Source: a virus
IMG/VR virus record: IMGVR_UViG_3300044720_000104
Span: 1 to 22,010 of that record
DNA: 22,010 nucleotides
Direction: 5' to 3' (one strand)
How positions within the stretch are numbered: the stretch's first letter is position 1; each line of letters opens with the position of its first letter. The notes beneath the pieces were generated by a model. It made no database searches and was not told where the DNA came from. It saw only the letters and a list, made by a program, of their open reading frames with translations. Positions 2,140 to 14,102 of the stretch are shown here, in pieces. The translations under genes were made by a program, and so were the position numbers.

Positions 2140-3113
2140 AAGGAATGAAGCGCATCACCAGAGACGCCTTCGACAAATACCGCGAACAAATGGGCGCGGA
2201 ATATGTTGATGACATTCTCGCAAAGCTTGGACTCGGTCCGAAATACGTTGCACCGGAGAAGCAACTTTTCAAATGCGCGCGCTGCGGTGGCGAGAACGCT
2301 TACTGGCACGAGTTCGGTGCCGACTGTGATGCAGGCCAGAACTACATGGCGCTCTATTGCCCCGACTGCGGTCATGAGGATGAGAACCCCAAGAAGCAAA
2401 TCATGAAACCACTCACTGAAGAATTTGGCGACCGCCTGGTCACGCTGCACACCGGCGCAGTTGGGTTGCGCGGCGGCATCATCAGCGAAGTGAAAGCCGT
2501 CGCGGATGACGAGAGCTGCCTTGACTTCATCGGCAGCGACAATCGCGTGGACCGCTACGGTGAAGTGATCGAGCAAGACGGTTGGGACACGAAAAACTTT
2601 CTGGCTAATCCCGTGATTCCTGACTGCCACGATTATTCCAGCGTGGCCCGCATCCTGGGCCGCGCGAAATCTCTGGCCGTGAAAGATGTGGCAGGCCGCA
2701 AGGCCCTGCACAACCGCGTCAGCTTCGCGATGGACAACCCACTCGGCGCGATGGCGTTCAAGATGGCGAGCAAGGGTTTCATTCCCGCGCAGAGCGTCGG
2801 CTTCATCCCGCTCACCTGGACCAACGGTGTCGGCAAAGACCAGCCCGCGCGCACTTACAAGAAATGTGAGTTGCTGGAAATTTCCCTGGTCGTGGTCCCG
2901 GCCAATCCCGGCGCGACGAACCAAATAACGAAAGCGCTCAACGAAGGCGCGATCAACAAGAGCGACCTGCGCGCGTGCGCGGAGTTCTTCAAACAATTTT
3001 GCAGTGGCCAGGGAGACGACGAAGCCAAGGCCCGCGCAACCGGCTCGTCAGTCCATTTTGCGCAGTTGCTGTCAATCGGGCGAGCCACGACGGCCGCGCT
3101 CAAACACACGTAA
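2136..3113 (+). CDS. HK97-type prohead protease with N-terminal zinc ribbon
   Basis: This is the serine protease that cleaves the capsid protein's scaffold-like arm and itself during head maturation (peptidase U35/S78 family). Residues about 125-265 carry the fold: DFIGSDNRVDRYGEVI, a candidate catalytic His165 in PDCHDY, candidate Ser220 in AQSVGF, and the late strand ELLEISLVVVPANP. Residues 47-78 add a zinc ribbon (C47xxC50 and C75xxC78), which is not part of the usual protease domain. The GTG start overlaps the portal stop (GTGA) and has a strong AAGGAGG ribosome binding site at 2122-2128. At 325 residues it is longer than typical members, because of the ribbon and a C-terminal tail. It lies directly before the capsid gene, as expected. 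Confidence 0.88.
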   Translation: MKGMKRITRDAFDKYREQMGAEYVDDILAKLGLGPKYVAPEKQLFKCARCGGENAYWHEFGADCDAGQNYMALYCPDCGHEDENPKKQIMKPLTEEFGDRLVTLHTGAVGLRGGIISEVKAVADDESCLDFIGSDNRVDRYGEVIEQDGWDTKNFLANPVIPDCHDYSSVARILGRAKSLAVKDVAGRKALHNRVSFAMDNPLGAMAFKMASKGFIPAQSVGFIPLTWTNGVGKDQPARTYKKCELLEISLVVVPANPGATNQITKALNEGAINKSDLRACAEFFKQFCSGQGDDEAKARATGSSVHFAQLLSIGRATTAALKHT

Positions 3114-5392: not shown

Positions 5393-5596
5393 ATGCAAGA
5401 GCCGCCGAAGGATCGAATGATGAAGTCGAGAGAAGTCACTACTCGGCCTTCGTCGGCTTCTAGCGAACTGCTGCCGCAGGGTGAACCACAGCGCGGGGAA
5501 TGCTCCGTGTGCAACGGCGCAATCGTCCGCTACGGCACCGGCATTTGGCACCACGTCACGTTCACATCCGGCCACGGCGCTTTTCCAAAACGATGA
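5393..5596 (+). CDS. Small CxxC putative zinc-binding protein
   Basis: A 67-residue protein with no family I can name. The N-terminal half is polar and probably disordered. The C-terminal half holds CSVCNGAIVRYGTGIWHH, a Cys-x-x-Cys followed by His-His that could bind zinc. The ATG is preceded by GAGGA at 5384-5388, a reasonable ribosome binding site. It is the last gene of the head block before the non-coding, highly folded stretch at 5619-5916. It could be a small head or connector accessory protein, but only position suggests that. Confidence 0.55.
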   Translation: MQEPPKDRMMKSREVTTRPSSASSELLPQGEPQRGECSVCNGAIVRYGTGIWHHVTFTSGHGAFPKR

Positions 5597-5618
5597 CCCT
5601 CTCGATCCAAAAGCAAAA

Positions 5619-5693
5619 TGCCCCCCGCACGTTGAGACGCGCGGGAGGCAGCTTGCCTCAACGGCGAAGTGAACCCGCGCCGCACGGGGGGCA
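5619..5693. other. Folded domain 1: closing stem with internal pseudoknot-capable repeats
   Basis: The outer stem is TGCCCCCCG (5619-5627) with CGGGGGGCA (5685-5693). Inside, GTTGAG (5631-5636) matches CTCAAC (5657-5662) and GCGCGGG (5639-5645) matches CCCGCGC (5674-5680), giving interleaved order. AGGCA/TGCCT (5646-5650/5654-5658) is a small inner hairpin that competes with CTCAAC by two bases. Confidence 0.6.
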
Positions 5694-5711
5694 AAGTAAA
5701 TCGCCTGCCAC

Positions 5712-5789
5712 CGGTGAAAAGTCTGGCCCACGCTTCCTCACGTGTCCAGTTCGTGAGTGCGCGTGCTGGACAGGCCAGACCGTTCACCG
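5712..5789. other. Folded domain 2: long arm with two mutually exclusive inner hairpins
   Basis: The base stems are CGGTGAA/TTCACCG (5712-5718/5783-5789) and GTCTGGCC/GGCCAGAC (5721-5728/5773-5780). Above them, fold A pairs CACGC/GCGTG (5729-5733/5761-5765) and CTCACG/CGTGAG (5737-5742/5752-5757). Fold B pairs TGTCCAG (5743-5749) with CTGGACA (5766-5772). Both folds stack directly on the base stem, but on opposite strands. Confidence 0.65.
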
Positions 5790-5796
5790 CCGCAAT

Positions 5797-5873
5797 GCAG
5801 TCATCCCTGCTGTCGGATGCGTTGTTGCGCCGCACGCATCACGGGCGAAAGCGGTTCGACTGCTGCAGCAGTC
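5797..5873. other. Folded domain 3: shared pairing partner and 16-bp perfect palindrome
   Basis: GACTGC at 5858-5863 can pair with GCAGTC at 5797-5802, enclosing hairpin GATGCGT/ACGCATC (5816-5822/5834-5840). It can instead pair with GCAGTC at 5868-5873, forming the palindrome GACTGCTGCAGCAGTC (5858-5873). That local hairpin is extended by AAGCGG/CCGCTT (5849-5854/5878-5883), which in turn excludes the CGGTC/GACCG hairpin (5874-5890). Confidence 0.55.
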
Positions 5874-5922
5874 CGGTCCGCTTCAGACCGAGAGCCGCGC
5901 GGGGATCAGCCGCGCGACAAAA

Positions 5923-6240
5923 TCACTCCAGTTCGATGGCGTTCCATCGCTCAATCAAAACGTCCCAGTCATCGGCATCAAGTTCCCCAAGATGGTAAAA
6001 CGGCGCCAGCGCGATTTGAGCCGCGAGGGATTGCAGGTCGGTGTTGGCATGAATCTCGATGGTAGCGAGGAACTGATCTCCGCTGCCAACCTGAGTGAGT
6101 TTCACCAACGCCTCTTTGGTGGAGGCTCGTTTAACATCCACGTCGTAGCCGCCGTTGATAGTGATGTTCACGGTATAGCTCAGCCCATTGGACACAGTGC
6201 CATAGTGGTTGTCGTTTCTGCGCTTCAACGTCTTGTTCAT
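5923..6240 (-). CDS. Unknown 105-residue protein on the opposite strand (moron-like)
   Basis: This is the only gene I accept on the minus strand. I do not recognise the family. Residue and codon use look natural: YTVNITINGGYDVDVKRA suggests beta strands at the N-terminus, and a helical acidic C-terminus follows (GELDADDWDVLIERWNAIE). There are no cysteines, membrane segments or signal peptide. I chose the ATG at 6240, preceded on its own strand by AAAGG, rather than a GTG 11 codons further out. It lies inside a plus-strand late operon between a head gene and a connector gene, with a folded region downstream and a palindrome upstream. That is the usual arrangement of a moron, a gene added to a phage with its own expression signals. 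The opposite-strand reading here looks like an antisense shadow. Confidence 0.7.
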   Translation of the reverse strand: MNKTLKRRNDNHYGTVSNGLSYTVNITINGGYDVDVKRASTKEALVKLTQVGSGDQFLATIEIHANTDLQSLAAQIALAPFYHLGELDADDWDVLIERWNAIELE

Positions 6241-6278
6241 AACTGCCTTTTTGTTTTCGGTTCCGGGTCTCACGCCGG

Positions 6279-6294
6279 GTCAGTTGTTACTGAC
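6279..6294. promoter_or_regulatory. Palindrome between divergent genes (possible operator)
   Basis: GTCAGT-tgtt-ACTGAC is a perfect 6-bp inverted repeat with a 4-base centre. It lies 38 bases upstream of the minus-strand start at 6240 and 65 bases upstream of the plus-strand start at 6360. It could be a repressor operator or a small hairpin. I see no convincing -35/-10 pair in this 119-base gap. Confidence 0.4.
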
Positions 6295-6359
6295 ACGCCC
6301 ACATTATCAGGAGTCGGCCAGGCGGCTATTGGAAAACCACAACCCCATTTCCAACCGCA

Positions 6360-7007
6360 ATGAACGCCGGCTTCTCCAATCTCGCGACGTTGAAAGCAAA
6401 CGTTCTTGCTGTCGAGTTACGGCCGCGCACGACGTGGGACACGCAGCTCGCGGCGATTGGCCTCGGTGTGGCCAGCGCGATTGAGAATCATTGCAGCCGT
6501 AAGTTCGCGCGCGTGGCAGGCGACACGGAAACTTTCGCGGCCGATTACTCGCACTTCCAGCTCTCGCGCAAACCCGTCGAAGCCATCTCCAAAATCGAAC
6601 TGAAGCTGAGCGAGGCCGATGGATGGACCACTCAAGTCATCAACGATTTCGTTCGCACGATCGATTACGAGCGCGGGTTCATTTATTTGCCGGACGTGGA
6701 TGCTGGTGAAGCCGATCAATTGATTCGATTCACATACACGGCCGGCTACTTCTGGGAGACAAAAGAAACGTCCGACGCCGGCTATCCAACGGCGCAACCA
6801 GTTGGATCGGCTCCGGTGCCCGAAGATCTAAAACTTGCCTGGCTGTTGCAGGTCCGCACGACATGGCAATCGGTGGACAAGCTTGGCACCGACATTACAA
6901 AGACCGGTGCGGCTGGCGAATTTGTCACCGGCTCACTCCCTGGACTCGATCTGATTCCAGGCGTGAAGCAAATGCTTCGGCAATTCATCCGGGAGGCTTG
7001 GGTATGA
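6360..7007 (+). CDS. Head-tail connector protein, HK97 gp6-like
   Basis: This 215-residue protein likely forms the ring (adaptor) docked under the portal. The N-terminal part matches the family pattern: short helices (LATLKANV, TWDTQLAAIGLGVASAIENHCSRKF), then beta strands. The C-terminus has the usual helical ending (DLIPGVKQMLRQFIREAW) that inserts toward the portal. It is longer than the ~100-residue minimal gp6 proteins because of a beta-rich middle, as in longer connector families. The start is an ATG without a clear Shine-Dalgarno motif, after a C- and A-rich leader. The stop overlaps the next start (ATGA at 7004-7007), so the two are probably translationally coupled. Confidence 0.75.
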   Translation: MNAGFSNLATLKANVLAVELRPRTTWDTQLAAIGLGVASAIENHCSRKFARVAGDTETFAADYSHFQLSRKPVEAISKIELKLSEADGWTTQVINDFVRTIDYERGFIYLPDVDAGEADQLIRFTYTAGYFWETKETSDAGYPTAQPVGSAPVPEDLKLAWLLQVRTTWQSVDKLGTDITKTGAAGEFVTGSLPGLDLIPGVKQMLRQFIREAWV

Positions 7008-10726: not shown

Positions 10727-13404
10727 AGAAACTGTTTTTCATTTCTGCTCTCTGCTTTCTGTTTTCCGCTGCCGCGCAAGCGGACTTCCGGATTTATCGC
10801 ACGCTGCAGCTCACTAACGCCGCCAACCTCACGAACGGCAGCGCCTTCACGCTCGGCAGCGACACGCGCACCGGCACGAATGGCGTGCTCGCCAGCACGT
10901 TGTTCTACCAGCTCACCAACCGCGTCGATAAGATGCGCACCAATCTCTACAACGCCATCGCTGCGAATCCATTCAGTGGCATCACCACGATCATTGATCT
11001 TACGGGGACTAACAGCCTCACCTTCATCGGTGGCACGAATGTGAATTTCTCGCTGAGCGTGTATGGCAGTTGGGCCAACATCAGCAACTACACGAGCACG
11101 GTGTTCAGCTCTGCGGCGCTCATCACGCCCTACACGATTCAATCGAACGTGTTCCGGGAATGGCAAATGTCTCAGCTCGCGGACATGCTCAACTGGGCGA
11201 CCAACCAGTTCAGCAACACGATCACAGTGCTGTCTCGGTTTCTCAGCACGCGCACGAACGGACAGCACGGCACCAACATATATTTCGAGCTAGGCAACTG
11301 GGGTGGCGCGCTCAGCAATGCGCAACTCAGCGGCGCGCTCTTCACGAACGGCACGCTTTATCTCACGAGCGCACCAACGGTGAAGACGATTGTGGCTCTC
11401 ACAACGAACACGACCTTCATCAATTCCAACGCGGGCGGGCAGGGCTTCTTCTTTCCCGATCAGAACACTTCGAAAGACCCGGACACGGGTTATGCAAACA
11501 ACATCATCGCGGCCGTTGGTGACATCTACGACACGTATCCCGGCTTCAACGAGGAGCAACTCTCTTTTGATTTTTTTGCTGATGCTATCGTCACCATCCT
11601 GGGGAACGCGAAGCTCACCAACTCCCAGTTCTTCGGCCCAACCAACACCGTGCGCGGAAACCTACAGTTCGCCGTCGGCTCGGCGCTCCAGAGCGCGGAC
11701 ACGCTGGAGAATTGGAACTACAAATCGCTGGCGGAGGTCAAAGATTCTTCCACGGCCCTTCGGCCCAACGATTTCCCAGCCTCACAATACTCTTTCAACG
11801 GGACGAACCTCACGATCAAGTCCGGCGCGAACCTTACCAACGTCGTTTTCTGGGGACCGATCACGGTGAATGGAGTCTTCAACGGCGGTCTCTATTCCAA
11901 CATCACGTTCAACGCCGGCAGCGGCATCGTTGGGAACCTCATCGCCACGAACGCGAACATTTACGTCCTGCTCTCGACCAACTTCACGTTGAGCAACGGC
12001 TCAATGACGCTCGGCAATTTGTATGCGACCGCATTGCGTGGACCGACCACGAACTTTGGCGCGATGGCTTTTGTGCCAGCCTACGTCACGACCATGAGCG
12101 CCGGTGCGAATTCCATTACGCGGCTCACGAACAATTTGATCTTTTTCTCCGGGAGCGCGAGCGCTTCGTTCGACTCCATCACCACGAATCTCGGCGGCGG
12201 CGATTTCTTCTTCGGCTGGAACAGGAGCGGCGGGTCCATCGCGATCAAGCACGAGAGCACCGCCACCGCTGAGGGTCTGGTCAATCCGGGGACGCGGATC
12301 AACACGCCCGATGGCACGACGGTCAATTGGCCAAACAACACCCTCGCACTTTTTTGGCACGAGGCCGGTTCAGTGAACCGATGGCTCCCGACCGTGTTTG
12401 CGAACACAAACGCGCTCGCGACCAACGTGGTCCTGCAGAGCGTCGGTAACACCAACGCGACACGCATCGGACTTGAATCCACGAACACCAGCGGTGGCGT
12501 TTTGCAGCTCAAAACGCTGAGCGCTGGAAACTCCATCACGCTAACCAATGAAGGAACCAACGTGGTCGTTGCCTTCAGCGGGACAACCGGAGAAGCGAAC
12601 GTGAACGGCGAAGTCTCGGTCACTAACGCGGCGCGCTTCGGTCTTGTGAATGGCAAGAGCGGCGTCACCAATCTCACGCGGTCCATTTCGCCAGGCTACG
12701 GACTCAGCGGCACGAACGAGGGAACGAACATTGTCCTCGCGATCAACCCGGCCGTCGTTGCGTCGCAATCCGATCTGACGACGCTGAGCAACAACCTCGC
12801 AGACGTCGCCAACTGGCCCGGCTACTCCGGCCAGTTCGGCCAGACGCAAAGCGTTTACGCGCTCGGATGGAACCAGATCACCGCCACACCGTGGGGCACG
12901 TCGGGCACCGTGCTGACGAACGGAAATTATCGACTGTTCCCTTGGTTCAGCGGCAGCGGTGGTGTGATCACGCAGATGTCCTGCAATGTGAAGACGGCCC
13001 CAAGCGGTAACATCCGATTCGGTATTTACGAGTCCACGTCCACGAAAAACTTTTGGCCGTCCAACCTGGTTTACGACTCCGGCTCGGCCGTATCGGCGGT
13101 GGCGATCATGACGAGCAACTGCACGGTCACGATCAAACCGGCTCGCATGTATTGGTCGGTGGTCCAGGCAGACGCCGCCTCGGCCGTTGCCGCCCCGACC
13201 GCCTTCGCTGCGCACCAGGTCGCGCTCGGCTTCCCATCGCTCGCGGCCATGTCGGTATCGGGCGGCGCGCCGCTCGCCTTTGAATATCAGCCCGGAACGT
13301 ATGGGACTTTGCCCTCGACATTCCCGGCCGGTTCCACTCCGGCGAACGTCATTTGGCAGACCGCCTCCGGCTACACGGTGATCTTGGCCGCCCGGTTCCA
13401 ATGA
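10723..13404 (+). CDS. Large Asn/Thr-rich fibre-like protein with N-terminal signal peptide
   Basis: An 893-residue protein. Residues 1-20 form a textbook signal peptide (MKKLFF, hydrophobic core, AAAQA). Residues about 25-690 are rich in N, T, S and G with recurring 'NLTNG', 'TLTNEGTNVV' and 'NVVF' phrases, as in beta-helical or fibrous stalks. Residues about 700-825 resemble a fibre-tip or carbohydrate-binding beta sandwich (NIRFGIYES, NLVYDSGSAV, ARMYWSVVQA), followed by a C-terminal tail that could fold as a trimer tip. The likely role is host attachment. GGAAG lies just before the ATG, which overlaps the upstream stop (ATGA). A cleavable signal peptide is unexpected on a phage fibre, and the position upstream of the tape measure gene is also unusual. 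Confidence 0.65.
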   Translation: MKKLFFISALCFLFSAAAQADFRIYRTLQLTNAANLTNGSAFTLGSDTRTGTNGVLASTLFYQLTNRVDKMRTNLYNAIAANPFSGITTIIDLTGTNSLTFIGGTNVNFSLSVYGSWANISNYTSTVFSSAALITPYTIQSNVFREWQMSQLADMLNWATNQFSNTITVLSRFLSTRTNGQHGTNIYFELGNWGGALSNAQLSGALFTNGTLYLTSAPTVKTIVALTTNTTFINSNAGGQGFFFPDQNTSKDPDTGYANNIIAAVGDIYDTYPGFNEEQLSFDFFADAIVTILGNAKLTNSQFFGPTNTVRGNLQFAVGSALQSADTLENWNYKSLAEVKDSSTALRPNDFPASQYSFNGTNLTIKSGANLTNVVFWGPITVNGVFNGGLYSNITFNAGSGIVGNLIATNANIYVLLSTNFTLSNGSMTLGNLYATALRGPTTNFGAMAFVPAYVTTMSAGANSITRLTNNLIFFSGSASASFDSITTNLGGGDFFFGWNRSGGSIAIKHESTATAEGLVNPGTRINTPDGTTVNWPNNTLALFWHEAGSVNRWLPTVFANTNALATNVVLQSVGNTNATRIGLESTNTSGGVLQLKTLSAGNSITLTNEGTNVVVAFSGTTGEANVNGEVSVTNAARFGLVNGKSGVTNLTRSISPGYGLSGTNEGTNIVLAINPAVVASQSDLTTLSNNLADVANWPGYSGQFGQTQSVYALGWNQITATPWGTSGTVLTNGNYRLFPWFSGSGGVITQMSCNVKTAPSGNIRFGIYESTSTKNFWPSNLVYDSGSAVSAVAIMTSNCTVTIKPARMYWSVVQADAASAVAAPTAFAAHQVALGFPSLAAMSVSGGAPLAFEYQPGTYGTLPSTFPAGSTPANVIWQTASGYTVILAARFQ

Positions 13405-14102
13405 ACGTTCTCCGCGCCATATTCCTGGCGTTCGCGCTGCCGATGGCGCTGCTGTGGGAGATCGTCAAGGAATGGTTTTCCCGCGCTCGCGATTTCGGCT
13501 CCGGACTGCTGGTCTGCGTGGGTTATGGACTGGAAGGTTCACGGTCCGTTGTTCGTGGTTTGTTGTTTCTCCTTTGCGTCATGGCGGCATTGCGTGCCTC
13601 CTCGGCGTTGACCAACGTGGTCGTGCTGAACTGGCCCTGGGCCACGAACGGCCCCGCGGAAGAATACGCGATCTGCGGCAGCCAGGAGATCCGCTATACG
13701 GTCCTCAATCTGCCGGTCGAACCCGAGCGCTACGCGGAGGGAAATACGAACCGCAACAAATTCAACGTGCCGGGCGGTGGCTACCACTTCCTCGGCTTCT
13801 CGACCAATGGCGAGTTTCGTTACACCAACGTGGCGGGCCGCATCGATTACATTTGGGACATCGACTGCCCTGGAAACGATTACGGACCCGACCGGGTGAA
13901 CTGCGTGACCAACCGGATCGAGCAATGGATCTACTCGCTCGAAGCGATGCGGTTTGAAGTGTCGATCTTTCGTGGCGAGCCGCACTGCTGGGACACAGCG
14001 CACTATCGCACCGTGTGGGACCAGTTCCCGGACTACATCGGCGATGGCTGGTGGAAGCTCACCAACGGGCCCATCCGCATCCGACTGGAGCAAATGCTGT
14101 GA
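13401..14102 (+). CDS. Membrane-anchored protein with two N-terminal hydrophobic segments
   Basis: A 233-residue protein I do not recognise. Hydrophobic segments lie at about 3-22 (VLRAIFLAFALPMALLW) and 52-64 (RGLLFLLCVMAALRA), separated by a charged stretch. The second, with ASSA after it, could be cleaved like a signal peptide. The remainder (70-233) is a soluble domain with four cysteines in its second half, rich in W, Y and N, and likely exported. I start at the ATG that overlaps the fibre stop (ATGA); extending upstream would only read through the fibre gene. Codons about 46-57 are encoded by a degenerate 7-base repeat. Possible roles include entry, lysis or superinfection functions, but none is supported by a motif. 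Confidence 0.6.
   Translation: MNVLRAIFLAFALPMALLWEIVKEWFSRARDFGSGLLVCVGYGLEGSRSVVRGLLFLLCVMAALRASSALTNVVVLNWPWATNGPAEEYAICGSQEIRYTVLNLPVEPERYAEGNTNRNKFNVPGGGYHFLGFSTNGEFRYTNVAGRIDYIWDIDCPGNDYGPDRVNCVTNRIEQWIYSLEAMRFEVSIFRGEPHCWDTAHYRTVWDQFPDYIGDGWWKLTNGPIRIRLEQML
13537..13571 (+). repeat. Degenerate heptanucleotide repeat (GTTCGTT type)
   Basis: Five consecutive 7-base units start GTTCACG, GTCCGTT, GTTCGTG, GTTTGTT and GTTTCTC. They lie inside the membrane-anchored protein gene, just before its second hydrophobic segment. Period seven matches the CTCTCAA array at 4782, although the unit differs. Confidence 0.65.

What the first reader, a model, noticed from the sequence alone, without database searches (positions are those of the whole stretch)
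5619..5916. Undescribed, densely folded ~300-base element inside a phage late operon
Five consecutive structured units, each with perfect stems of 5-9 bp, fill a stretch that has no convincing gene. About half of its bases can sit in perfect helices at once. It lies between convergent genes inside an otherwise plus-strand structural operon. I know phage-associated large RNAs such as GOLLD and ROOL and the phi29 packaging RNA, and I recognise none of them here. Possible roles are a phage regulatory RNA, a structured 3' UTR and terminator of the minus-strand gene, or a recombination/cruciform site.
Basis: partly seen in the sequence, partly recalled or inferred. Interest (0 to 1): 0.8.

Follow-up and report, generated by a model that had tools for sequence, protein, structure and literature searches.

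The report
Folded tail of reverse phage gene
In a virus of Verrucomicrobiota bacteria, a 300-base non-coding stretch really is unusually strongly folded, most likely because it is the untranslated tail and transcription stop signal of a small reverse-oriented extra gene found only in this virus, so it is more ordinary than a new class of RNA.

Summary
5611-5922 is the most structured 300-base stretch of the 22-kb window (z about -6 to -7 on the minus strand, about -4 to -5 on the plus), is non-coding in all six frames, and has no Rfam match. The excess is strand-biased to minus. It comes mainly from two units: a 14-bp terminator stem followed by TTTTGCTTTT (5650-5619), and a 76-base hairpin (5788-5713). 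The rest (5796-5922) is near chance when folded alone.

Ten related phages with the same gene order have 145-331 bases between the flanking genes, against about 1000 here. The stretch is therefore part of a ~750-base insert: a minus-strand ORF (6240-5923) with phage-like codon usage, plus its 3' tail and terminator. Neither has a detectable relative, so covariation cannot be tested. Best reading: structured 3' UTR and intrinsic terminator of a moron-like accessory gene. An independent small RNA, a plus-strand mRNA element or a DNA inverted repeat remain possible.

Its arms change together: 21 of 22 late-gap members pair at both variable positions, against 3 of 39 chance matches.

The parts
5923..6240 (-). 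small accessory ORF (105 aa, orphan), ATG at 6240 preceded by AAAAAGG
   Evidence: codon usage like the phage genes (0.26); no relative; absent from relatives
5611..5922 (-). densely folded non-coding stretch read as the 3' UTR of the minus ORF
   Evidence: z -6.3 to -7.2 on minus; non-coding in six frames
5894..5918 (-). 9-bp hairpin immediately after the stop codon (GTCGCGCGG/CCGCGCGGC)
   Evidence: part of 5796-5922, which alone is near chance
5713..5788 (.). 76-base hairpin; arms of 17 nt, 88% complementary, at 5712-5728 and 5773-5789
   Evidence: z -4.3 minus and -5.05 plus; inverted repeat I1
5619..5650 (-). intrinsic terminator: 14-bp stem, 4-base loop, tail TTTTGCTTTT; extended pairing 5612-5657
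   Evidence: 14 pairs, next best 8; stem probability 0.99
5600..6350 (.). approximate extent of the insert between the small late ORF and the head-tail adaptor gene
   Evidence: gap 145-331 bases in ten relatives, about 1000 here

Best explanation
The stretch is the non-coding tail of a small gene on the minus strand. A cassette of about 750 bases (ORF 6240-5923 plus the folded stretch 5922-5611) was inserted into the gap between the capsid-side genes and the head-tail adaptor gene, in reverse orientation. RNA polymerase leaving the ORF transcribes a string of local hairpins and stops at the strong intrinsic terminator at 5650-5619. The terminator keeps the accessory transcript from running on as antisense into the capsid genes, and the hairpins probably shield its 3' end from exonucleases. 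Shown: insert absent in relatives, ORF with phage codon usage, minus-biased folding, canonical terminator shape on that strand. Inferred: that it is transcribed, that it is one transcript with the ORF, and the protective role.
For: Starts directly behind the ORF's stop codon and ends at a 14-bp GC-rich stem followed by TTTTGCTTTT on the same strand, the best such site by far in 20 kb. Folding excess larger on minus than plus for the whole stretch in every measure; the terminator rod folds well only on minus (z -4.5 against -2.1). Six-frame coding scores negative in the stretch, phage-like in the ORF. Ten relatives with both flanking genes lack the insert. [quoted passage not shown]
Against: No sigma-70-like promoter was found upstream of the ORF or anywhere in 4-8 kb. 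A 300-base 3' UTR with this much structure is far more than a terminator needs. The hairpin 5713-5788 folds as well on plus as on minus, which a minus-only RNA does not explain. No expression data; no relatives, so no selection on the structure can be shown.
Confidence: 0.55

Rival explanations
1. An independent phage-encoded structured small RNA on the minus strand, about 300 bases, transcribed from its own promoter or processed from the ORF's transcript, acting in trans or on the overlapping late mRNA.
For: Strong minus-strand folding with tandem local hairpins and a terminator at the 3' end; non-coding.
Against: No promoter-like site, no Rfam match, no homologue by DNA, pattern or single-sequence covariance model; parts 5796-5922 near chance.
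Confidence: 0.16
2. A plus-strand element of the late mRNA: hairpins between capsid and connector genes that stabilise the capsid message or damp downstream expression. The insert would have brought an extra copy of a function this gap often carries.
For: Other phages of the group have strong hairpins in the same gap, including a covarying one and, in L015, an unrelated 70-base one; the hairpin 5713-5788 is as good on plus.
Against: The whole stretch folds worse on plus in every measure; on plus only 39% of bases lie in perfect helices, not clearly above shuffles (27/300).
Confidence: 0.14
3. A DNA-level inverted repeat: a relic of a small mobile element, a recombination site or a cruciform, which explains both the insertion and the symmetric hairpin 5713-5788.
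For: 17-nt arms, 88% complementary, 44 nt apart; equal fold on both strands; lies in an insert.
Against: No second copy in this record or in 388 Verrucomicrobiota genomes; the terminator rod is strand-specific; no insert-bounding repeats stood out.
Confidence: 0.1

Closest known systems
Phage morons / accessory genes with their own transcription signals (e.g. genes 45 and 60 of Serratia phage eta, PMC3918226)
   Same: Extra small gene interrupting an operon, absent from relatives, with its own terminator.
   Different: No promoter found here; 3' tail is unusually long and folded; codon usage is phage-like rather than foreign.
Rho-independent (intrinsic) terminators
   Same: GC-rich stem directly followed by a T-rich tail on the gene's strand.
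   Different: Very long stem (14 bp plus 6 further pairs) preceded by some 250 bases of other hairpins.
Large phage-associated RNAs in Rfam (GOLLD, ROOL) and phi29 packaging RNA
   Same: Structured non-coding sequence in a phage genome.
   Different: No covariance-model match at gathering score or in the permissive list; no conserved relatives.

Membership tests
Intrinsic terminator | GC-rich hairpin immediately followed by a U tract on the transcribed strand | tested here: met
   14 pairs, 10 GC, tail TTTTGCTTTT
Intrinsic terminator | stops transcription in vivo or in vitro | not testable with these tools
   needs RNA-seq or an in vitro transcription assay
Phage moron | inserted between genes that are adjacent in relatives | tested here: met
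   gap 145-331 bases in ten relatives, about 1000 here
Phage moron | own terminator | tested here: met
Phage moron | own promoter | tested here: inconclusive
   no sigma-70-like site; a lone GATAAT at 6308-6303 has no -35 at normal spacing (by eye); the host's promoters are not covered by the scan
Phage moron | base composition or codon usage unlike the phage | tested here: not met
   codon score 0.26, inside the range of the phage genes; a common but not obligatory trait
Conserved structured RNA class (Rfam-type, incl. GOLLD, ROOL, pRNA) | match to a family covariance model | tested here: not met
Conserved structured RNA class (Rfam-type, incl. GOLLD, ROOL, pRNA) | homologues with compensatory changes | tested here: inconclusive
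   no homologue found to test

The most novel reading that the evidence does not exclude
5611-5922 encodes a new phage small RNA, expressed from the minus strand inside the late operon and working on the overlapping capsid/connector mRNA or on a host target, with the small ORF as its partner.
Probability: 0.12. Interest if true: 0.55.

Novelty: new member of a known kind. Interest (0 to 1): 0.25.

Why it matters
As a terminator-tailed accessory gene it is one more case of the plasticity of phage structural operons, with an unusually folded 3' tail. If the tail were an active RNA it would be a new phage RNA lineage. Its neighbour, the conserved hairpin inside a small late ORF, may matter more: there the RNA or DNA pairing appears to dictate which amino acids the peptide carries.

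Tried and rejected
A coding explanation for 5619-5916: the long + ORF 5500-6363 and five other overlapping ORFs have negative codon scores. Rfam at gathering and permissive thresholds; tRNA/tmRNA. Homologue hunts: blastn in phages, ORF by tblastn in phages, in IMG/VR and in bacterial genomes (the weak hits are short local matches, mostly inside long ORFs, at the level expected for 388 genomes); DNA in 388 Verrucomicrobiota genomes, only 20-45 base chance matches; an 18-base exact pattern in IMG/VR; a single-sequence covariance model of 5611-5795 in 289 genomes and 41 loci, whose one genome hit at E 0.008 is what chance gives over 289 genomes. Structure prediction of the ORF product failed (pLDDT 38.5), so no fold search was made. 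A first sliding-window fold timed out and was rerun coarser. The global minimum-energy fold rearranges when some 10 bases of the 3' end are trimmed, so only the local hairpins are trusted.

Full report
WHAT WAS CHECKED. The window is a 22,010-base IMG/VR virus record. Its genes read as a tailed-phage late block: portal with a Mu F-like part, prohead protease, major capsid protein, head-tail adaptor, then further genes up to the end of the record.

The stretch 5600-5922 folds at -174 kcal/mol on the minus strand, z -6.9, and -153, z -4.25, on the plus strand. With pairing limited to 90 bases, which suits a string of local hairpins, minus gives z -7.2 and 60% of bases in perfect helices of at least 5 bp against 35 +- 7% in shuffles (0/300); plus gives z -4.7 and 39% (27/300 shuffles as high). 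Over 218 windows tiling the record it is the extreme case: 28 kcal/mol below its shuffles on minus, where the mean is 1.6 and the sd 5.8. A regression-based scan with 250-base windows, which cut the element up, rated it lower (z -3.4 at 5626), so the exact z depends on the frame chosen. No frame of 5600-5922 looks coding, and Rfam and ARAGORN find nothing.

ANATOMY. Two units carry the signal. The first is a 14-bp stem with a 4-base loop at 5650-5619 on minus, followed at once by TTTTGCTTTT; among 21 terminator-like sites in 20 kb it has 14 pairs and the next best 8. It is strand-specific (rod z -4.5 minus, -2.1 plus). The second is a 76-base hairpin at 5713-5788, whose 17-nt arms are 88% complementary; it folds equally on both strands (z -4.3 and -5.05). 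The remaining hairpins, 5796-5922, are near chance when folded alone (z -2.1, -1.3). The global fold is not unique: trimming about 10 bases of the 3' end changes the long-range pairings.

SURROUNDINGS. Directly upstream on minus is a 105-codon ORF (6240-5923) with a plausible ribosome site (AAAAAGG) and phage-like codon usage (0.26; phage genes 0.11-0.33). In ten relatives the distance between the upstream gene (g4743) and the adaptor gene (g6360) is 145-331 bases; here it is about 1000. So the ORF and the folded stretch are one insert of about 750 bases. Neither has a detectable relative, and the ORF's structure could not be predicted.

MOST LIKELY MECHANISM. Transcription of the accessory ORF runs through the folded stretch and stops at the intrinsic terminator before it can become antisense to the capsid genes. 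The hairpins between stop codon and terminator plausibly protect the 3' end. Position, orientation, terminator and insert status are shown; transcription and protection are inferred. The lack of a recognisable promoter is the main weakness; the scan covers only sigma-70-like sites. Rivals are an independent small RNA, a plus-strand late-mRNA element, or a DNA inverted repeat; the symmetric hairpin 5713-5788 keeps the last two alive.

In this phage group a small late ORF (window 5393-5596, peptide M-x-x-QPP[KRQS]DRM...RP[LV]A in most relatives) sits at the same gap. Its start and its middle form a long hairpin. In 15 aligned arm pairs five positions change on both sides and the covariation score is 0.26 against 0.107 +- 0.018 in shuffles, with no slid register above 0.106. 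The arms were aligned by hand on their common register, which favours pairing, and related sequences can beat such shuffles, so a second test was made: a degenerate pattern that allows arms to match or mismatch was run over IMG/VR. Of 22 matches in the late gap, 21 pair at both variable positions (AA/TT, CA/TG, CG/CG, TC/GG), while only 3 of 39 matches elsewhere do (counted by hand from its table; some late-gap matches are near-duplicates). One coupled position is a silent third base of a proline codon, so protein-level selection alone does not explain it. Other phages of the group without this ORF have different hairpins just before the adaptor gene, so the gap seems to favour structure. Strand and function are open.

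VERDICT. It is not shown to be a new RNA class.

Noticed in passing
window 5398-5460; also L005, L006, L007, L008, L010, L012-L015, L021, L024, L027, L028, L031, L039, L040 and loci: A conserved hairpin inside a small late ORF (peptide QPP[KRQS]DRM...RP[LV]A) between capsid and adaptor genes; arms covary, including a silent proline third base coupled to the K/Q/R/S codon. Possibly more interesting than the given finding; strand and function unknown.
   Followed up: partly
L015 about 2820-2950 (and its near-duplicate L016): An unrelated long nested hairpin (GGACCGCGAGC...GCTCGCGGTCC) in the same capsid-adaptor gap, minus-strand z -6.6, followed by AATTTTTAATTTTTAATTTTT repeats.
   Followed up: no
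L018, L022, L030, L036, L038 just upstream of base 3001: Different strong hairpins between the capsid gene and the adaptor gene in relatives that lack the small ORF.
   Followed up: no
L046 9780-9890: A near-perfect inverted repeat of about 30 bp (TTTTTCTTTGGCGATCCCGCCTTCGC / GCGAAGGCGGGATCGCCAAAGAAAAA) close upstream of a portal relative.
   Followed up: no
L010 about 13400-13450: GGCGGCCGGCC...GGCCGGCCGCC palindromic hairpin directly behind the major capsid gene.
   Followed up: no
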